From contig CACCWT010000002.1 in NCBI GenBank assembly GCA_902549785.1, forward strand, positions 3,803 to 67,802: a DNA stretch of 64,000 nt, written 5' to 3'. Positions 57,375-64,000 of this stretch are shown piece by piece (the first letter of the stretch is position 1; the number at the start of each line of letters is the position of its first letter). The notes under the pieces were generated by a model, which saw nothing but the letters and a program-made list of their open reading frames with translations, was not told the origin of the DNA and did no database searches. A program made the position numbers and the translations under genes. Source of the DNA: an uncultured Pelagibacteraceae bacterium (GTDB taxonomy: Bacteria; Pseudomonadota; Alphaproteobacteria; Pelagibacterales; Pelagibacteraceae).

Positions 57375-57743
57375 TTATTGTTTTTGATCAAGAGGATGAT
57401 TCTTTCCATCATTAACAGGGACATCCTCGATTTCGAACGGTTCTACGCCTTCTATGCAAGCAATATTCACACCATATATTTTTGGATTACTTCTAGGTCT
57501 GTTATGAGTATGAATTCCACAGATAGAACAAAAGTAATGTTTGGCAGTATTAGTATAAAACTGATAAAGCGTTAACTTGTCCTCTCCTTTTGTAAGTTTA
57601 AAATCATCAGGACCAAGCACTCCTATAATGTAACCTTTTTTTTTGCAGATTGAACAATTGCAACGCATGATCTTTTCAACACCGCCTATAGGAATTTTTA
57701 CTTCGGCTTCAATTGCCCCACAGTGACAAGTTAATTTTTTCAT
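57375..57743 (-). CDS. GFA (CENP-V/GFA domain) family protein, copy 1
   Basis: A 122-residue zinc protein of the glutathione-dependent formaldehyde-activating family. The zinc-binding cysteines are C5 and C7 in LTCHCGAIEAEV, the CNCSICKKKGY cluster near 28-33, and CSICGIHTHNRPR near 71. Most family members are not proven to act on formaldehyde; they probably bind thiol adducts. It follows the second family member by 20 bases, with only modest identity between the two (different lengths and loops), so they are old paralogues. Confidence 0.88.
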   Translation of the reverse strand: MKKLTCHCGAIEAEVKIPIGGVEKIMRCNCSICKKKGYIIGVLGPDDFKLTKGEDKLTLYQFYTNTAKHYFCSICGIHTHNRPRSNPKIYGVNIACIEGVEPFEIEDVPVNDGKNHPLDQKQ

Positions 57744-57763
57744 ATTTTAATCTCCTAACAAAA

Positions 57764-58249
57764 CTATTTATTAATATTTTTTTTTAAATATTCTCCGTAT
57801 CTTTTTAAACTTTCCTCTGGCCATGTTTTCTTTGGATCATACATCTTTTCAAAACAAATTACATCATCTGTAAGTTTTAGCCATGGATCTTTATCTTTTG
57901 TAAAAATATGCACTTGTGGTGGAAAACTTTTTGAATTATCTAAAGTTTTAGTTCTAACTGTTAATCTACCAACAGCTGAGGCATAATCAGTATAAATATA
58001 AGTTCCACATTTGGTACAAAAATATGCATTGGAAGTGGCGCCGCTTCCTGCTTTAAGTTCTGTTGATGCAACTTCTCCTTCTATAATTAAAGTGTTATCT
58101 AAGACGCTTGTATTAATAACGTATGAAGACCCAGTTATAATTTTACAATCTTTACAATGACAAGCTTGGGTGAATAGAGGCTTTTCTGTAATTCTATATT
58201 TAATCTGACCACAAATACATCCTCCAGTTAAGCTTTCGTTTTTTTCCAT
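57764..58249 (-). CDS. GFA (CENP-V/GFA domain) family protein, copy 2
   Basis: A 161-residue member of the same family as its neighbour. Zinc ligands are in TGGCICGQIKYRI near 9-14, QACHCKDCKIITGSSYV near 28-33 and NAYFCTKCGTYIYTDYA near 76-80; the C-terminal extension (IYDPKKTWPEESLKRYGEYL type) is common in the family. It is the first gene of the two-gene unit and is divergent from umuDC, with 166 bases between the two starts. A palindrome and a direct repeat lie in that gap. Confidence 0.88.
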   Translation of the reverse strand: MEKNESLTGGCICGQIKYRITEKPLFTQACHCKDCKIITGSSYVINTSVLDNTLIIEGEVASTELKAGSGATSNAYFCTKCGTYIYTDYASAVGRLTVRTKTLDNSKSFPPQVHIFTKDKDPWLKLTDDVICFEKMYDPKKTWPEESLKRYGEYLKKNINK

Positions 58250-58415: not shown

Positions 58416-58811
58416 ATGAAGCTAACTATACCTTACTATTTACATAAAGCTGGCGCGGGTTTTCCGTCCCCAGCTACTGACTATATTGAGGAAGACATAG
58501 ATTTAAATGTTCACTTAATCAAAAATGTTCCAGCAACCTTCATCATAAGAGTTCAAGGAAAATCAATGGTGGATGTGGGAATTAATGATGGCGATCTATT
58601 AGTTGTTGATAAGAGTTTAACACCAAAAAATTTCTCAACAGTTATTGCAAATGTTCATGATGAACTAGTTGTTAAAAGTTTAGTTCAAGAAAGGGATAAA
58701 AAATTTTTAACATCAGGTTCTAAAGAATTTACAGATCGAATTTTAATTAATGAAGATGAGGATATATTTATTTGGGGAGTTGTAACTTATGTCATCCATT
58801 CAGTATACTAA
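58416..58811 (+). CDS. umuD: UmuD-type S24 peptidase (translesion polymerase subunit)
   Basis: A 131-residue protein without a helix-turn-helix domain, so UmuD rather than LexA. The self-cleavage site is in [10 protein letters not shown], between A14 and G15, matching the E. coli CGFPSPA site. The catalytic Ser50 is in VQGKSMVD and Lys87 in ELVVKSLV, both at the expected spacing. Cleavage yields UmuD', which with UmuC forms DNA polymerase V. It overlaps umuC by 23 bases. Confidence 0.93.
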
Positions 58812-60066
58812 AAAAATAGCACTTATTGATTGTAACTCTTTTTACGTTTCTTGTGAAAGATTATTCAATCCTAAAATAAGAAAAAAACCTGTTGTAGTTT
58901 TATCTAATAATGATGGTTGTATAATTTCAAGATCAACTGAAGCAAAAGCTTTAGGTATTAAAATGGGAGAGCCTTACTTTAAAGCAAAAGATATTATTAT
59001 TAAAAATAAAGTTGAAGTTTTTTCATCCAATTATTCTTTGTACGGAGATTTATCTAGAAGAGTAATGAGAACATTGAAAAGATTTAACTCTGCTATTGAA
59101 GTTTATTCTATCGATGAAGCATTTCTAGATTTGTCAAATTTTTCAGATGATGAAGTTGAAAAGGTCGGAAGAGAAATCAGAGAGACAGTTTTAAAGTGGA
59201 CAGGTATTCCAACTAGTATTGGTATTGCTAAGACAAAAACTTTAAGCAAAGTTGCAAATCATATTGCAAAGAAAAAAAAATCAGGTGTAACAAGTTTGAT
59301 AGGAATTGAAAATATTGATCCAATATTAGAAAAAGTTGAAATTAACGATGTATGGGGTGTGGGAAGACAGTTAACAAAATTTTACCATAAAAACGGAATT
59401 TATAATGCAAAACAACTAAAAAACAAATCAAATACCTGGATAAAGAAAAACTCTAATGTTTTGGGTTCAAGAACTGCAATGGAACTAAGAGGAGTTCCTT
59501 GTATTGATTTAGAGACAACACAAACAAAAAGAAAAAGCTGTGTTGTATCTCGTTCTTTTGGCCAAAGAATTGAAAAATATCAAGAATTAAAAGAAGCAGT
59601 TGCAAATTATTGTTTGAATGCGTCTGAAAAAATCAGATCTGAGTCTTTAATTGCAAAGTCAATTACAGTTTTTGTTAGAACAAGTCCTTTTCAAAGTAGA
59701 TTTGGATATTATTCAAACTCAAAAACCATAGATTTTGCGATTTCAACGAATAATAGTATTGAAATAGTTAAAACTGCTTTGGTTGCTTTAGACTCTATCT
59801 TTAAAAACGGTTATCGTTATCAAAAAGCAGGTGTAATGCTTACTGGTTTATCCAATGAAAATCGTAGTAAGAACCTATTTTATTCTGAAAAAGATGAGAA
59901 AATAAAGGGTTTAATGAAGTCTATTGATAACACTAACTACCGGTATGGAAGATCTACGTTAAGTCTTGCTAGCGCTGGTGTCCAAAAAAGATGGAATATG
60001 AGAAGAGAGCATTCTTCTAAAATAGATACAGCTGATTTTTACTTACTCCCAACGATTAGAGCCTAA
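58789..60066 (+). CDS. umuC: UmuC, Y-family translesion DNA polymerase
   Basis: A 425-residue polymerase of UmuC length. Its palm has [21 protein letters not shown] near 8 (first metal Asp) and [16 protein letters not shown] near 99 with the catalytic Asp-Glu. [17 protein letters not shown] near 35 and [19 protein letters not shown] near 141 are family blocks. The thumb region has [12 protein letters not shown], and the C-terminus carries the UmuC-specific tail. It copies past damaged bases, at the price of mutation. It is SOS-controlled with umuD and ends one base before the convergent lyase-like gene. Confidence 0.95.
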
Positions 60067-61074
60067 TTAAAAAGGTCTAGGATTATTTGGATAGCCAAGA
60101 TTTTCACAAGTACCATCGTTATCTGCATCAGCTGGTTTGCAAAGTACAACTGCTGAAGCACCATGTACTTGGGATTGATTTTTAAGCTGGCCTGTTATTT
60201 CATCACATCCACTCCATAGTTCATCACAGGAATTTGCTTTACCCACATTAGAATAACGAATAATTGCGTCTTTTATTGTTAAACCTGCATCAGTAGCATA
60301 TGTCATATAATTTCTATAAGGTCCAAATTTAAATCTCACACTAGTAGCACCACCTAAAACATCTCCGAAGTAACTAGATCTGAGCTTACCATCTATCCAA
60401 AAATGTAAAAATCCATCTTTAGACCATTTAGCATTAATCAAAATATTTACCCATTTACCTTTCAACGGAGAAAATTTTTGATCCAAATTAACTACATAAT
60501 GATCAAAGAAAAATTGTTCATCAACTTCATTTTTTGAAACTCTATAATTTGGCCCATTGAACAACCAAGCAAAACTATTGTTATTTAAGTTATACGAAGG
60601 GCCAACTGTTTTTTCACCTTTTCCATAAAGCATTTTAAAATCAAATAATGAGATATTATGTTTCTCGGTATCTACTTCATTTGGAATAAAATAACCAACT
60701 CTATACCACTTTGTTTTTCCTTTTTTTGTAGTTTGCTTATATGGCTCCATAATTTGAAATCTCTGAGCAAAACCTGGACTTCCCCACCTACTCCAGTCCA
60801 TTTCATCCCCTACATCTGAATAACTTAAATTAAATTCAATTCCTTTTTCCGCAACACCCATTCTATCTTCTAATTTATCAAAAAATTTTATTAGACCTGG
60901 ACGATTTGGAACATTTCTAAGATTAAAAACCATTTTATTTTTAGATTGATTTCTAAGAACATAATTTGCAAAATCTTTCCTCTCTTGCTTTTTCATATTT
61001 GTATGCCATTTACCAGCGTACGAATATGATGGAATTAACAAGAGAGATAGAAGAATGATTAAAATTTTTTTCAT
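60067..61074 (-). CDS. Secreted polysaccharide-lyase-fold protein (heparin lyase I-like), copy 1
   Basis: A 335-residue protein with a signal peptide (residues 1-20, ending YSYA). The body fits the heparin-lyase-I-like polysaccharide lyase domain (a beta-jelly roll): RNVPNRPGLIKFFDKLEDR near 55, EFNLSYSDVGDEMDWSRWGSPGFAQRF near 80-106, WYRVGYFIPNE near 123, KWVNILINAKWSKDGFLHFWIDGKL near 207-231 and VRFKFGPYRN near 247. The tail beyond 275 has four to five cysteines and a DADNDG calcium-type loop. It is last in a four-gene operon, and umuC ends at the next base. Confidence 0.72.
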   Translation of the reverse strand: MKKILIILLSLLLIPSYSYAGKWHTNMKKQERKDFANYVLRNQSKNKMVFNLRNVPNRPGLIKFFDKLEDRMGVAEKGIEFNLSYSDVGDEMDWSRWGSPGFAQRFQIMEPYKQTTKKGKTKWYRVGYFIPNEVDTEKHNISLFDFKMLYGKGEKTVGPSYNLNNNSFAWLFNGPNYRVSKNEVDEQFFFDHYVVNLDQKFSPLKGKWVNILINAKWSKDGFLHFWIDGKLRSSYFGDVLGGATSVRFKFGPYRNYMTYATDAGLTIKDAIIRYSNVGKANSCDELWSGCDEITGQLKNQSQVHGASAVVLCKPADADNDGTCENLGYPNNPRPF

Positions 61075-61077
61075 AAA

Positions 61078-61989
61078 TTATTTTGGTAAATTATTACAAT
61101 CATGAAATAAGGCTGTTTTCTTACATTTTTTTCCACTTCTAAAAGAATCATAATAAGCAACTTGTGTTTTTACAGGAATTTTTCTTTTTCCATTGTAAAT
61201 TCCAAAACGAAAACTAGGTCCCATTTTTTTTCCATCTTTTTTTCTTTTGAGCAACTTACCAAATGTTTTGCCTTTTGATTGATAAACTAATTTATCATTA
61301 ATCCATAAATCAATGAAACCATCCTCTTTATCAGTCCAATTTACGTTCATTAAAAAATCATGCCATTTGTTGTGCAAAGCCTTTGTAGGTATAATTAATT
61401 CTCTTCCATACCCTTCGCATTGGAGCACTCCATCTTTTTCAATTGTAACTCCTTCTCTTTCTAATTTGAACACTATTGGTATTTCAGGACAATCTTCATC
61501 AAAACCAGAAGAATTAACTCTATTCAATTGCTTAGTATAGTCACTTGGCATTTTAAATTGTCCTAAGATTGTATAGGCAGGTCTAATATGATTTGTACCT
61601 TCGGGGATATACATAGACCATGCATACCAAACATTTCCTATATGCCCTTTTGCACTAGATGGATAATTTCCTTCAAAAATAACTTCACTCCGTCCAGCTT
61701 TATTAGATCTATCACAATCTCGTCGATGGCAATCACCATCTCTCATTTCAAAACGTAATGAATATTTTCCATCTCTAACAATTTTTGTCTCATATCTTAA
61801 ATTCCAAGGATTTGGCGCGATACGTCCATGTGTTTCAATTTTACCCCATGATCCTGTTTTCTCTGGCCATTTTATAAATTTCGAGTGTTTAAAAACATAA
61901 TTTTCATCTAAATATTTTTTAGGCGGATCTTTTGCTTGAGCAAAAGATGATAAAATTAAAATAAAAAAGATAATTAAAAGTTTTTTCAT
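61078..61989 (-). CDS. Secreted polysaccharide-lyase-fold protein (heparin lyase I-like), copy 2
   Basis: A 303-residue protein with a signal peptide (residues 1-19, ending AQA). Features of the heparin-lyase-I-like domain: GKYSLRFEMRDGDCHRRDCDRSNKAGRSEVIFEG near 73-106, with an Arg/His/Cys-rich loop, WYAWSMYIPEG near 120, LGQFKM near 140, NKWHDFLMNVNWTDKEDGFIDLWINDKLVYQSKGK near 211-245 and SFRFGIYNGK near 265. The frame opens at a TTG at 61998, but the ATG at 61989, which overlaps the previous stop (ATGA), gives the better signal peptide. It is related to the next gene at low identity. Confidence 0.75.
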   Translation of the reverse strand: MKKLLIIFFILILSSFAQAKDPPKKYLDENYVFKHSKFIKWPEKTGSWGKIETHGRIAPNPWNLRYETKIVRDGKYSLRFEMRDGDCHRRDCDRSNKAGRSEVIFEGNYPSSAKGHIGNVWYAWSMYIPEGTNHIRPAYTILGQFKMPSDYTKQLNRVNSSGFDEDCPEIPIVFKLEREGVTIEKDGVLQCEGYGRELIIPTKALHNKWHDFLMNVNWTDKEDGFIDLWINDKLVYQSKGKTFGKLLKRKKDGKKMGPSFRFGIYNGKRKIPVKTQVAYYDSFRSGKKCKKTALFHDCNNLPK

Positions 61990-63119
61990 TTTATACAATT
62001 AGCATTAAATCCAATTAGATTGTCTATGCCATACTTTGATCTTTTGGCTAAATAAGTAATATCTTTTTCATGTTTTATTCCAGTTACCATTTCCATTAAG
62101 GTATCAATAGCTATAGCCTCTTGATGTGTGTGCTTTCTAGCATTATGTTTTTTATATTGATTATTTTTTTGCTTACCATCGTATTTTCTTGAGGAGAAAC
62201 TTTCATAATCAGTGATCCCTAAATTTAATACTTCTGCTGCTTTAGTAATTCTATTCATAACTGAGTCTGGAACTTTAGCCCCCCAATTTTTAGCTAAATA
62301 GATGTAACCTAAAGCTGAATTTAAACCATAAGAGTGATACCATAAGGCTCGAAACCCTCTAAAAGAATTATTATTGATATAGCCATCATCATAAAACACT
62401 TCCTCTATATTTTTAAATCTAAAATTGAATTCTTTTGCTGCTAGTTTTTTATTGTTTGTCCAATGAGCATAAGCTAAGTTTGGAATTCCTCCGTTTCCCA
62501 TTGCATAAAATCCTTTTTCTTTCTCTAAAAATTCTTCAGGCTTAATAAATTTTTTATGCATTTTTTTAATATACTTGTTAACAATTTTAATTTCTTTATC
62601 ACTTAAGTAATCTTTAAGATAAATTGCTATCAGCAAATAATTTGTAAAAGCATCCCTTGCAAATTCATATGCATGATACCAGCAAGGTGCCTCGGGATTT
62701 CCATCTTTCCAACATTTTGGTTTCTTTTTTAACTCTTCTTTACCGATTGTATCTAGTAAAACATTTGCTTTAGCTATTTTAATCAATATTCCTTTAGCGG
62801 CATCAATGTCAGTTTTATCATTATTACCAATTGCATTATGGGTAGCAACAGCATATGAGCTCATTGGACCAGTTAGATTTAGGTGATTCACACTTCTAGA
62901 ATTACCCAGCGCCCATTCACTCATCCAATCTAAACGTATTAAGCTTTCAATTCTAGCTTTTTTATATTTAGATTTAAAAGTCTCACCACCCACATATGAG
63001 CATGATTTAATCTTATCTATATAAAAATGTTTAGGAAAAGATATATCTTTAGATTTAACTTTTGCTTCAGCAGATAAACATAAAAATATACTAAATAAAA
63101 TTAAGAAAATTTTTTTCAT
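61986..63119 (-). CDS. Secreted alginate-lyase-like protein (alpha/alpha toroid)
   Basis: A 377-residue protein with a signal peptide (residues 1-19, ending AEA). The helical body has NHLNLTGPMSSYAVATHNAIGNN near 78, CWYHAYEFARDAFTNYLLIAIYLKDYLSD near 145-173, GNGGIPNLAYAHWTNNK near 208 and DDGYINNNSFRGFRALWYHSYGLNSALGYIYLAKNWG near 246-282, where R-A-L-W-Y-H matches the catalytic YH pattern of the alginate lyase domain. So this copy keeps the Tyr-His that the protein at 16046 seems to lack. It overlaps both neighbours by a few bases. Confidence 0.7.
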   Translation of the reverse strand: MKKIFLILFSIFLCLSAEAKVKSKDISFPKHFYIDKIKSCSYVGGETFKSKYKKARIESLIRLDWMSEWALGNSRSVNHLNLTGPMSSYAVATHNAIGNNDKTDIDAAKGILIKIAKANVLLDTIGKEELKKKPKCWKDGNPEAPCWYHAYEFARDAFTNYLLIAIYLKDYLSDKEIKIVNKYIKKMHKKFIKPEEFLEKEKGFYAMGNGGIPNLAYAHWTNNKKLAAKEFNFRFKNIEEVFYDDGYINNNSFRGFRALWYHSYGLNSALGYIYLAKNWGAKVPDSVMNRITKAAEVLNLGITDYESFSSRKYDGKQKNNQYKKHNARKHTHQEAIAIDTLMEMVTGIKHEKDITYLAKRSKYGIDNLIGFNANCIK

Positions 63120-64000
63120 TAAATTTTAAATAATTTGTCAGATAAATCTTGAAGTTTATCTCCCCAGAAAACTTCTTTTTGGATTCTTTTAAAATCTATA
63201 TCAAAAAACGGTAGACATAGCTGATGCATAGACAGATCTAGCATCAATTGTGGAATTTAAATCTCTTCCTTCAAATAATTCCTTTCGTTTAAGTCCTGGC
63301 CAGTCTGTATAAACTTGAGATTTTTTTAAAAGACCACCTGCCATAAAAATTGCAGATCCATAACCATGCTCTGTACCTCGTCCACCATTTTGCTCAATAG
63401 TTCTGCCAAATTCTGTTAGAGTTAAAACTAAAGTATTTTCAATTTCATTTCCAAGACCCTTCTCTAAACTTTTAAAAATTGAGTCCATTTCAATTAAACT
63501 GTCTGAATGAGAACCGTTTATTCCACCCTGAGCAGCATGAGTATCAAAACCATCAACTTCAAAAACAGCAACTCTTGGACCATTTATTTTTTTTAATTCT
63601 AAACCTGCTTTATAAGCTAAAGACGAATTTTTACGGGACATCGAAGTACCACCACTACTCATCATAGATCTATTAGCAATTATTTCCATCATATTAGCTA
63701 AATCATGTTCAGATTTATCTGCATAAACAGATTTTAAAAGTTGCAAAAGTTCTGTTCTTGGAAGTCTTTTTTTTGAAGGATAAAAATTATCATTACTTGG
63801 AATACCTCTTAATAGTAAAGGCATTGGCAAAGATAACGCAAGACCATCACCTTTCAATTCTCCTAATTTCATTCCTCTTCCTAACCAACCAGTTTTTATT
63901 GCATAAGGTATGTGACCTCCTGTTTCCATTAAATTTTGACCATCAAAATGTGATCTTTTTGTATATGGAATATTAGTTGCATGAACTATTGCTCCAAGAT
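63119..64000 (-). CDS. DUF1501 family protein, N-terminus outside the window, frameshifted near C-terminus
   Basis: The coding strand is open from the window edge (LGAIVHATNIPYTKRSHFDGQNLMETGG; SHFDGQ is typical of DUF1501) through GPRVAVFEVDGFDTHAAQGG, TLTEFGRTIEQNGGRGTEHGYGSAIFMAGG and STIDARSVYASAMSTVF, all DUF1501 hallmarks. The frame then meets a TGA at 63201-63203 that overlaps a run of six A (63203-63208). Removing one base restores 27 more residues (DIDFKRIQKEVFWGDKLQDL, then SDKLFKI) ending in a TAA that overlaps the next ATG (TAATG). DUF1501 proteins are related to the sulfatase/phosphatase superfamily; their function is unproven. Confidence 0.8.

What the first reader, a model, noticed from the sequence alone, without database searches (positions are those of the whole stretch)
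60067..64000. Operon of DUF1501, alginate-lyase-like and two heparin-lyase-fold exported proteins in a streamlined genome
Four minus-strand genes overlap or are three bases apart (TAATG, ATGA and a short gap). The last three carry signal peptides and resemble polysaccharide lyases. DUF1501 is related to sulfatase/alkaline phosphatase folds. SAR11-like cells are not known for using extracellular polysaccharides. Together they could be a secreted system that desulfates and cleaves an acidic or sulfated glycan, either as food or to remodel the cell's own surface. The function is inference from fold only, and the catalytic residues of the two jelly-roll proteins were not confirmed.
Basis: partly seen in the sequence, partly recalled or inferred. 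Interest (0 to 1): 0.75.

Follow-up and report, generated by a model that had tools for sequence, protein, structure and literature searches.

The report
Swappable secreted sugar-cutting enzymes in SAR11
A tiny ocean bacterium of the SAR11 group carries, at one fixed spot in its genome, an interchangeable set of exported proteins shaped like enzymes that cut acidic polysaccharides, which is unexpected in so streamlined a cell; whether they trim surface sugars or gather food is still open.

Summary
The set fills a replaceable slot of Pelagibacteraceae genomes between a GT39-GT2 pair and umuC/umuD: in the 60 of 80 P1 loci showing both flanks, P1 lies there, alone (16) or with other exported lyase- and hydrolase-like genes. 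Other relatives have other cargo or nothing.
Canonical uronate use looks absent (KDPG aldolase 0 of 101 genus genomes, GH88 1 of 62), but one P1-free slot pairs a PL5-like gene with transporters. P3 relatives with apparent signal peptides occur in 8 viral contigs (6 distinct). I lean towards editing of an acidic surface glycan (0.38) over foraging (0.33). Substrate unknown.

The parts
60067..61074 (-). P1: exported beta-jelly-roll protein, PF14099 Polysacc_lyase, nearest fold PL20 glucuronan lyase
61078..61998 (-). P2: exported PF14099 polysaccharide-lyase-like protein, nearest heparin lyase I (PL13) and glucuronan lyase (PL20); likely start ATG 61989
   Evidence: PF14099 106.9 bits; profile to 3imn E 5.3e-8 and 2zzj 3.5e-7; not modelled
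61986..63119 (-). P3: exported (alpha/alpha)-toroid lyase-like protein, PL5-type fold
63201..64000 (-). DUF1501 protein (3' part; frame ends early in this window; N-terminus beyond the window)
   Evidence: PF07394 78.5 bits; relatives carry a twin-arginine signal (59 of 65) and overlap DUF1800 by 4 bases in 48 of 49
58789..60066 (+). UmuC-like gene (label recalled), right flank of the slot, convergent with P1
   Evidence: borders the slot in the 60 P1 loci where both flanks are in view
58416..58811 (+). UmuD/LexA-like gene (label recalled), overlapping UmuC

Best explanation
The four genes are one allele of an exchangeable cassette of exported glycan-cleaving proteins in Pelagibacteraceae (SAR11). 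It sits in a replaceable slot between a GT39-GT2 sugar-transfer pair and umuC/umuD. P3, P2 and P1 are exported lyases, or close relatives of lyases, that would cut uronate-containing polysaccharide by beta-elimination with a conserved Tyr/Arg pair. DUF1501 carries a Tat signal; DUF1800, which has none of its own but is translationally coupled to it, may travel with it (inferred). The most likely target is an acidic glycan of the cell's own surface or periplasm (remodelling, clearance or masking) rather than bulk food; the set of lyases changes by gene replacement. Shown: anatomy, folds, slot, swapping. Inferred: catalysis, target, co-export.
For: Folds and most catalytic residues. In the 60 P1 loci with both flanks in view P1 lies between GT2 and umuC. 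Clean swap: G001's locus is 97% identical from the umuC side through P2 and 94% at the DUF1501 end, but has a different exported enzyme in place of P3; P3 is 97.4% identical to G045's although flanking blocks are 86.5-88.6%. Labelled lyase- and hydrolase-type slot genes have export-type N-termini in 131 of 133 (P1 58/60, P3 17/17, P2 13/13, others 43/43). PF01081 (KDPG aldolase) in 0 of 101 genus genomes (control 8 of 14); GH88 in 1 of 62 relatives, 38 of them of the genus (control 3 of 14). A strong UDP-sugar dehydrogenase match (best E below 1e-30) in 86 of 101 genus genomes, so uronate precursors can be made (my count). P3 relatives with apparent signal peptides (by sequence look) in 8 viral contigs, 6 distinct, one about 2 kb from a glucosaminidase that also looks exported: a phage gains from cutting its host's envelope, not from digesting food (inference). 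AlgL, a PL5 enzyme, clears its own cell's periplasmic polymer (PMC8829089, title, abstract start and passages seen).
Against: No substrate, no assay. The slot also carries unrelated cargo (PEP carboxylase, urease, ammonium transporter), so adjacency to GT39-GT2 need not mean shared function. In G020 (L061) the slot has a PL5-like gene next to an MFS transporter and an ABC transporter with solute-binding protein, which looks catabolic. In the 7 of 80 P1 loci with a sulfatase (no export-type N-terminus) the slot is not closed by umuC in view, and a ROK-type kinase (recalled) follows in some. UDP-sugar dehydrogenase does not track with the cassette: G001 and G014, which have P1, show only weak matches, though genomes are incomplete. 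The host of the viral contigs is unknown; the two genes tested are nearest to jumbo phages of other bacteria, and none of 50,697 named phage records matched P1, P2 or P3.
Confidence: 0.38

Rival explanations
1. Foraging: the cell secretes lyases to cut environmental acidic or sulfated glycans from algae or cyanobacteria and takes up the oligosaccharides; cassette swapping tracks the available glycans.
For: Some cassettes are large and varied, up to eight exported lyase- or hydrolase-type genes in L123/L033 (same contig), with PF14099 and PL5-like proteins, an enzyme with NEP and W[LIV]TE motifs (30 of 30) and a CxPSR sulfatase. In G020 (L061, no P1) a PL5-like gene sits beside MFS and ABC transporters and an alcohol dehydrogenase. 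PF14099 in 44 of 101 genus genomes.
Against: PF01081 in 0 of 101, GH88 in 1 of 62; no carbohydrate transporter identified within 60 P1 slots, though many genes were assigned by size or look; 16 of 60 slots hold P1 alone. A non-canonical route was not excluded.
Confidence: 0.33
2. Phage-related conflict: the lyases alter the surface glycan used by phages as receptor, and phages carry the same enzyme type to open or strip the envelope; rapid swapping reflects this arms race.
For: P3 relatives in viral contigs; gene-by-gene swapping; five of six viral rows lie in one loosely supported clade with a SAR11 sequence (G334; SH-aLRT 85, drawn open).
Against: Host of these phages unknown; no match to PADLOC defence models for six proteins; P1 and P2 have no relative in the viral collection.
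Confidence: 0.15
3. Non-catalytic or repurposed folds: P1 at least has lost lyase chemistry and binds or hydrolyses glycan instead.
For: P1 has Asp145 where PL13/PL20 enzymes have Gln, and Lys147 where heparin lyase I has His151, in 22 of 22. Cip1, a fungal protein with the fold of PL20 glucuronan lyase, showed no convincing lyase activity (PMC3764139, abstract start and passages seen).
Against: The lyase Tyr and Arg are invariant in P1 (22 of 22).
Confidence: 0.1

Closest known systems
PL5 alginate lyases (A1-III; Pseudomonas AlgL)
   Same: P3: fold over about 300 aligned residues, catalytic Tyr (Y261) and Arg (R254), the Asn (N209), export-type N-terminus
   Different: 10-13% identity; the His of the NH motif is Gly210; below the Pfam cut-off
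PL20 glucuronan lyase (2zzj) and PL13 heparin lyase I
   Same: PF14099 family; P1 modelled as beta-jelly roll; C-terminal F(R/K)FG(I/P)Y strand with the lyase Tyr in both; P2 keeps Gln144
   Different: heparin lyase I His151 is Lys in P2 (20 of 27, His in 7) and in P1 (22 of 22); the Gln is Asp in P1
DUF1800-DUF1501 pairs beside bacterial chitin synthase genes (PMC5122149, passages seen)
   Same: adjacent pair, Tat signal on DUF1501, transferable gene set linked to polysaccharide
   Different: no chitin synthase was seen among the genes profiled here (not searched for); the pair sits with exported lyases
SAR11 flexible genomic islands (phosphate/phosphonate island, HVR2; PMC7318151, passages seen)
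   Same: conserved flanks, replaceable cargo
   Different: different cargo; the words polysaccharide, lyase and urease do not occur in that main text

Membership tests
PL5 (P3) | (alpha/alpha) toroid fold | tested here: met
PL5 (P3) | catalytic Tyr and carboxylate-neutralising Arg (AlgL Y256, R249) | tested here: met
   Y261 and R254, 24 of 24 (AlgL numbering by my count from the alignment); roles from PMC8829089
PL5 (P3) | Asn-His pair (AlgL N201, H202) | tested here: not met
   N209 kept 23 of 24, Gly210 at the His 23 of 24, by profile alignment to SAR11 PL5-like proteins (hhalign 75.7%); H202A AlgL had no activity in vitro but no growth defect in vivo
Pfam Alginate_lyase PF05426 (P3) | score over the curated cut-off | tested here: not met
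   18.4 against 22.2 bits; of three viral relatives scanned one is over it, 31.9 bits
Pfam Polysacc_lyase PF14099 (P1, P2) | score over the curated cut-off | tested here: met
   34.8 and 106.9 against 29.9 bits
PL13/PL20 (P2) | Arg, Gln, His, Tyr active-site set | tested here: not met
   Arg 26/27, Gln 27/27, Tyr 27/27; His151 position is Lys in 20, His in 7; residue roles recalled
PL20 (P1) | beta-jelly-roll fold | tested here: met
PL20 (P1) | conserved Gln and Tyr of the active site | tested here: not met
   Tyr253 22/22 but Asp145 at the Gln position 22/22; roles recalled
Polysaccharide utilisation locus | co-located glycan transporter or uptake genes | tested here: inconclusive
   none identified in 60 P1 slots, but of 138 unlabelled genes 105 were taken as urease by length, 10 of the other 33 were profiled and one in L097 looks like a DMT-type permease (recalled); a P1-free slot (L061) does have transporters beside a PL5-like gene
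Polysaccharide utilisation locus | canonical pathway for unsaturated uronate products | tested here: not met
   PF01081 0 of 101, PF07470 1 of 62; other routes not tested
DUF1501 as sulfatase | profile relation to sulfatases | tested here: inconclusive
   hhalign probability 0.1 with shallow alignments
any of the above | lyase activity on a defined substrate | not testable with these tools
   needs purified protein

The most novel reading that the evidence does not exclude
SAR11 cells wear an uronate-rich surface polymer that they edit with a rapidly exchanged kit of exported lyases, and large marine phages carry one of the same lyase families, with its export signal, to breach or strip that polymer: a shared, swapping set of glycan cutters on both sides of one of the ocean's most frequent host-virus encounters.
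Probability: 0.2. Interest if true: 0.85.

Novelty: new variant of a known kind. Interest (0 to 1): 0.58.

Why it matters
SAR11 is usually described as living on small molecules (recalled), yet 44 of 101 genus genomes carry a PF14099 polysaccharide-lyase-family protein, some in a slot that is rewritten gene by gene. If active, these enzymes mean either a hidden route from polysaccharide to a dominant heterotroph of the surface ocean, or an acidic surface polymer that SAR11 itself maintains and that phages may attack. Both are testable with a few purified proteins. P3 would also be a PL5-like lyase lacking the usual His.

Tried and rejected
Foldseek against PDB and the viral library was not accepted, so structure comparison rests on VIA-align alone. 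PDB sequence search with single P1 and P2 found nothing and P3 only weak AlgL hits (E 0.18-0.21); profiles were needed. PHROGs gave no family for P1, P2, P3 or three viral relatives of P3. The G001 enzyme that replaces P3 has no Pfam family and only a weak xylanase hit (E 0.5); its clan GH-A reading rests on recalled motifs. T4 Gp23 was not found in the 8 viral records, but nothing rang in the controls, so this says nothing. PHROG hits to neighbouring genes (DNA polymerase 589 bits in L196, ATPase 334 bits in L193) show that those two contigs are phage-like; the other contigs were not profiled this way except two genes of L200 (weak hits). I first took a TRAP transporter beside some cassettes for sugar uptake; its neighbours look like an aromatic-catabolism set (sequence look only, recalled), so I do not count it. 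GT39-GT2 as functional partners was downgraded when the same slot was found to hold PEP carboxylase, urease and others. A phage origin of the abundant metagenome group within P0042-P0120 (54-57% identical to P3) is unproven: no genome of 349 has P0066 above 65%, and viral contigs reach 63-65%. Papers: searches (listings only, capped rows) showed no title on SAR11 lyase cassettes among the rows listed; this is not proof of absence, as subscription journals and preprints are not held. PMC7542561 was searched for five terms without a hit.
Full report
What is there. The minus strand from 64000 to 60067 carries DUF1501 (partial), P3, P2 and P1, tightly packed. The window's own assembly is not held; the nearest held genome shares 58% of sampled words. 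In the named genome collection 105 loci encode a P1 relative, and all 80 that were kept are titled Pelagibacteraceae; the closest are 99-100% identical.

Active sites. In AlgL, Y256 is the proposed acid/base, R249 neutralises the carboxylate and H202 stabilises the intermediate (PMC8829089, passages). P3 has Y261 and R254 (24 of 24) and N209 (23 of 24), but Gly210 at the His. H202A AlgL was inactive in vitro yet caused no growth defect in vivo, so the loss is not fatal to the reading. P2 keeps Arg100, Gln144 and Tyr265, with Lys146 at heparin lyase I His151 (20 Lys, 7 His of 27). P1 keeps Arg105 and Tyr253 but has Asp145 at the Gln and Lys147 (22 of 22). The residue roles for PL13 and PL20 are recalled. 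All three are lyase-like without meeting the strict motif of their nearest family.

The slot. Of 80 P1 loci, 60 show both GT2 and umuC, and in those P1 lies between them; 16 hold P1 alone and 35 hold one or two DUF1800-DUF1501 pairs (37 pairs). The other 20 lack one or both flanks in view; in 7 of them a sulfatase gene is present and umuC is not seen. All 49 DUF1800 genes are followed by DUF1501, 48 with a 4-base overlap. A twin-arginine signal is seen in 59 of 65 DUF1501 sequences; of the six misses, four are cut at a contig or window end and two are one locus seen twice with a late ORF start. DUF1800 has no hydrophobic N-terminus in 61 of 61. pool two sets of loci in which some contigs occur twice. 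Other slot genes are more PF14099 proteins, PL5-like proteins over the Pfam cut-off, an exported enzyme with clan GH-A motifs (recalled), FG-GAP proteins and, in the 7 loci, a CxPSR sulfatase without export-type N-terminus. In 38 further regions fetched at GT2 or DUF1501 hits the slot is empty in 12 and elsewhere holds PEP carboxylase, urease, an ammonium transporter fusion, or, in G020, a PL5-like gene with MFS and ABC transporters. GT2 has strong matches (E 1e-49 or better) in 44 of 61 same-genus genomes (my count). So it is a general replacement site, and GT39-GT2 may or may not be partners.

Swapping. Against G001's locus (L004, L090) the stretch from the umuC side through P2 is about 97% identical and the DUF1501 end 94%, but P3 is replaced by another exported enzyme between them; against G045, P3 is 97.4% identical while the flanking blocks are 88.6% and 86.5%. 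P3 relatives occur in 7 of 101 relatives, 5 at 65% identity or more; P1 relatives in 14 of 101, 8 at 64% or more; DUF1501 in 12 of 101; P0066-type proteins in 25 of 349 genus genomes, three of them only weak partial matches; PF14099 in 44 of 101 genus genomes but in 1 of 24 relatives outside the genus. Genomes are incomplete, so these are lower bounds. Single lyase genes also sit inside housekeeping operons, notably between what look like hisH and hisA (labels recalled), where four genomes have inserts of three types (P3, PLc, PLd).

Food or self. A usual fate of lyase products needs KDPG aldolase: PF01081 in 0 of 101 genus genomes (control 8 of 14). GH88 is in 1 of 62 relatives (control 3 of 14). 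No carbohydrate transporter was identified inside the 60 P1 slots; of 138 unlabelled genes there, 105 were taken as urease by length and 10 of the remaining 33 were profiled. This speaks against a canonical utilisation locus, while the sulfatase in some loci and the G020 slot speak for degradation. A strong UDP-sugar dehydrogenase match is in 86 of 101 genomes, but does not follow the cassette.

Viruses. P3 relatives (33-54% identical to P3) are in 8 viral contigs of 16-138 kb, two pairs of which carry the same or nearly the same lyase, so 6 distinct. Their N-termini look like signal peptides, in L199/L200 of lipoprotein type below the Pfam cut-off. Neighbours in the contigs profiled include a phage DNA polymerase and an ATPase/metallopeptidase pair, nearest in sequence (47-49%) to jumbo phages. 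The Tyr and Arg are kept (alignment A5: R255 and Y262 invariant in 12 rows, six of them viral). One contig has an exported-looking glucosaminidase about 2 kb away. GC of the fetched stretches, 33-36% (window 29.5%), does not settle the host. P1 and P2 have no relative in the viral collection, and no named phage record matched any of the three. In the tree, five of six viral rows fall in a group with metagenome proteins and one SAR11 sequence, SH-aLRT 85, drawn open; long branches make this loose.

Verdict.

Noticed in passing
L036 8644-9786; L177 6631-7470; L180 7885-8721; L192 2274-3158: A second exchange site: lyase-fold genes of three types (P3, PLc, PLd) inserted between genes that look like hisH and hisA in four SAR11 genomes.
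   Followed up: partly
L193-L200: PL5-like lyase genes with apparent export signals in viral contigs, two of them shown to be phage-like and near jumbo phages.
   Followed up: partly
most of proteins P0042-P0120: An abundant metagenomic group 54-57% identical to P3, on contigs up to 110 kb; its member P0066 was not found above 65% in 349 genus genomes nor above 63% in the viral collection.
   Followed up: partly
window 63201: Frame break in a T-run near the 3' end of DUF1501; intact copies exist in relatives.
   Followed up: partly
L004 11533-12546 and relatives (30 sequences in all): Exported enzyme with NEP and W[LIV]TE motifs (clan GH-A-like, recalled) but no Pfam family in the one scanned; it replaces P3 in G001.
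   Followed up: partly
L057, L058, L061, L062, L063: The GT2-umuC slot also carries PEP carboxylase, urease, an ammonium transporter-SpoIIE fusion, TauD and, in L061, ABC and MFS transporters: a general cargo site of SAR11.
   Followed up: partly
L143 15347-16906; L155 8479-9996; L099 8159-10000: Exported FG-GAP repeat proteins in the same cassettes, possible glycan-binding or surface partners.
   Followed up: no
window 57375-58249: Two adjacent small cysteine-rich proteins that look like GFA-type enzymes (recalled) near the slot; one is missing in several relatives.
   Followed up: no
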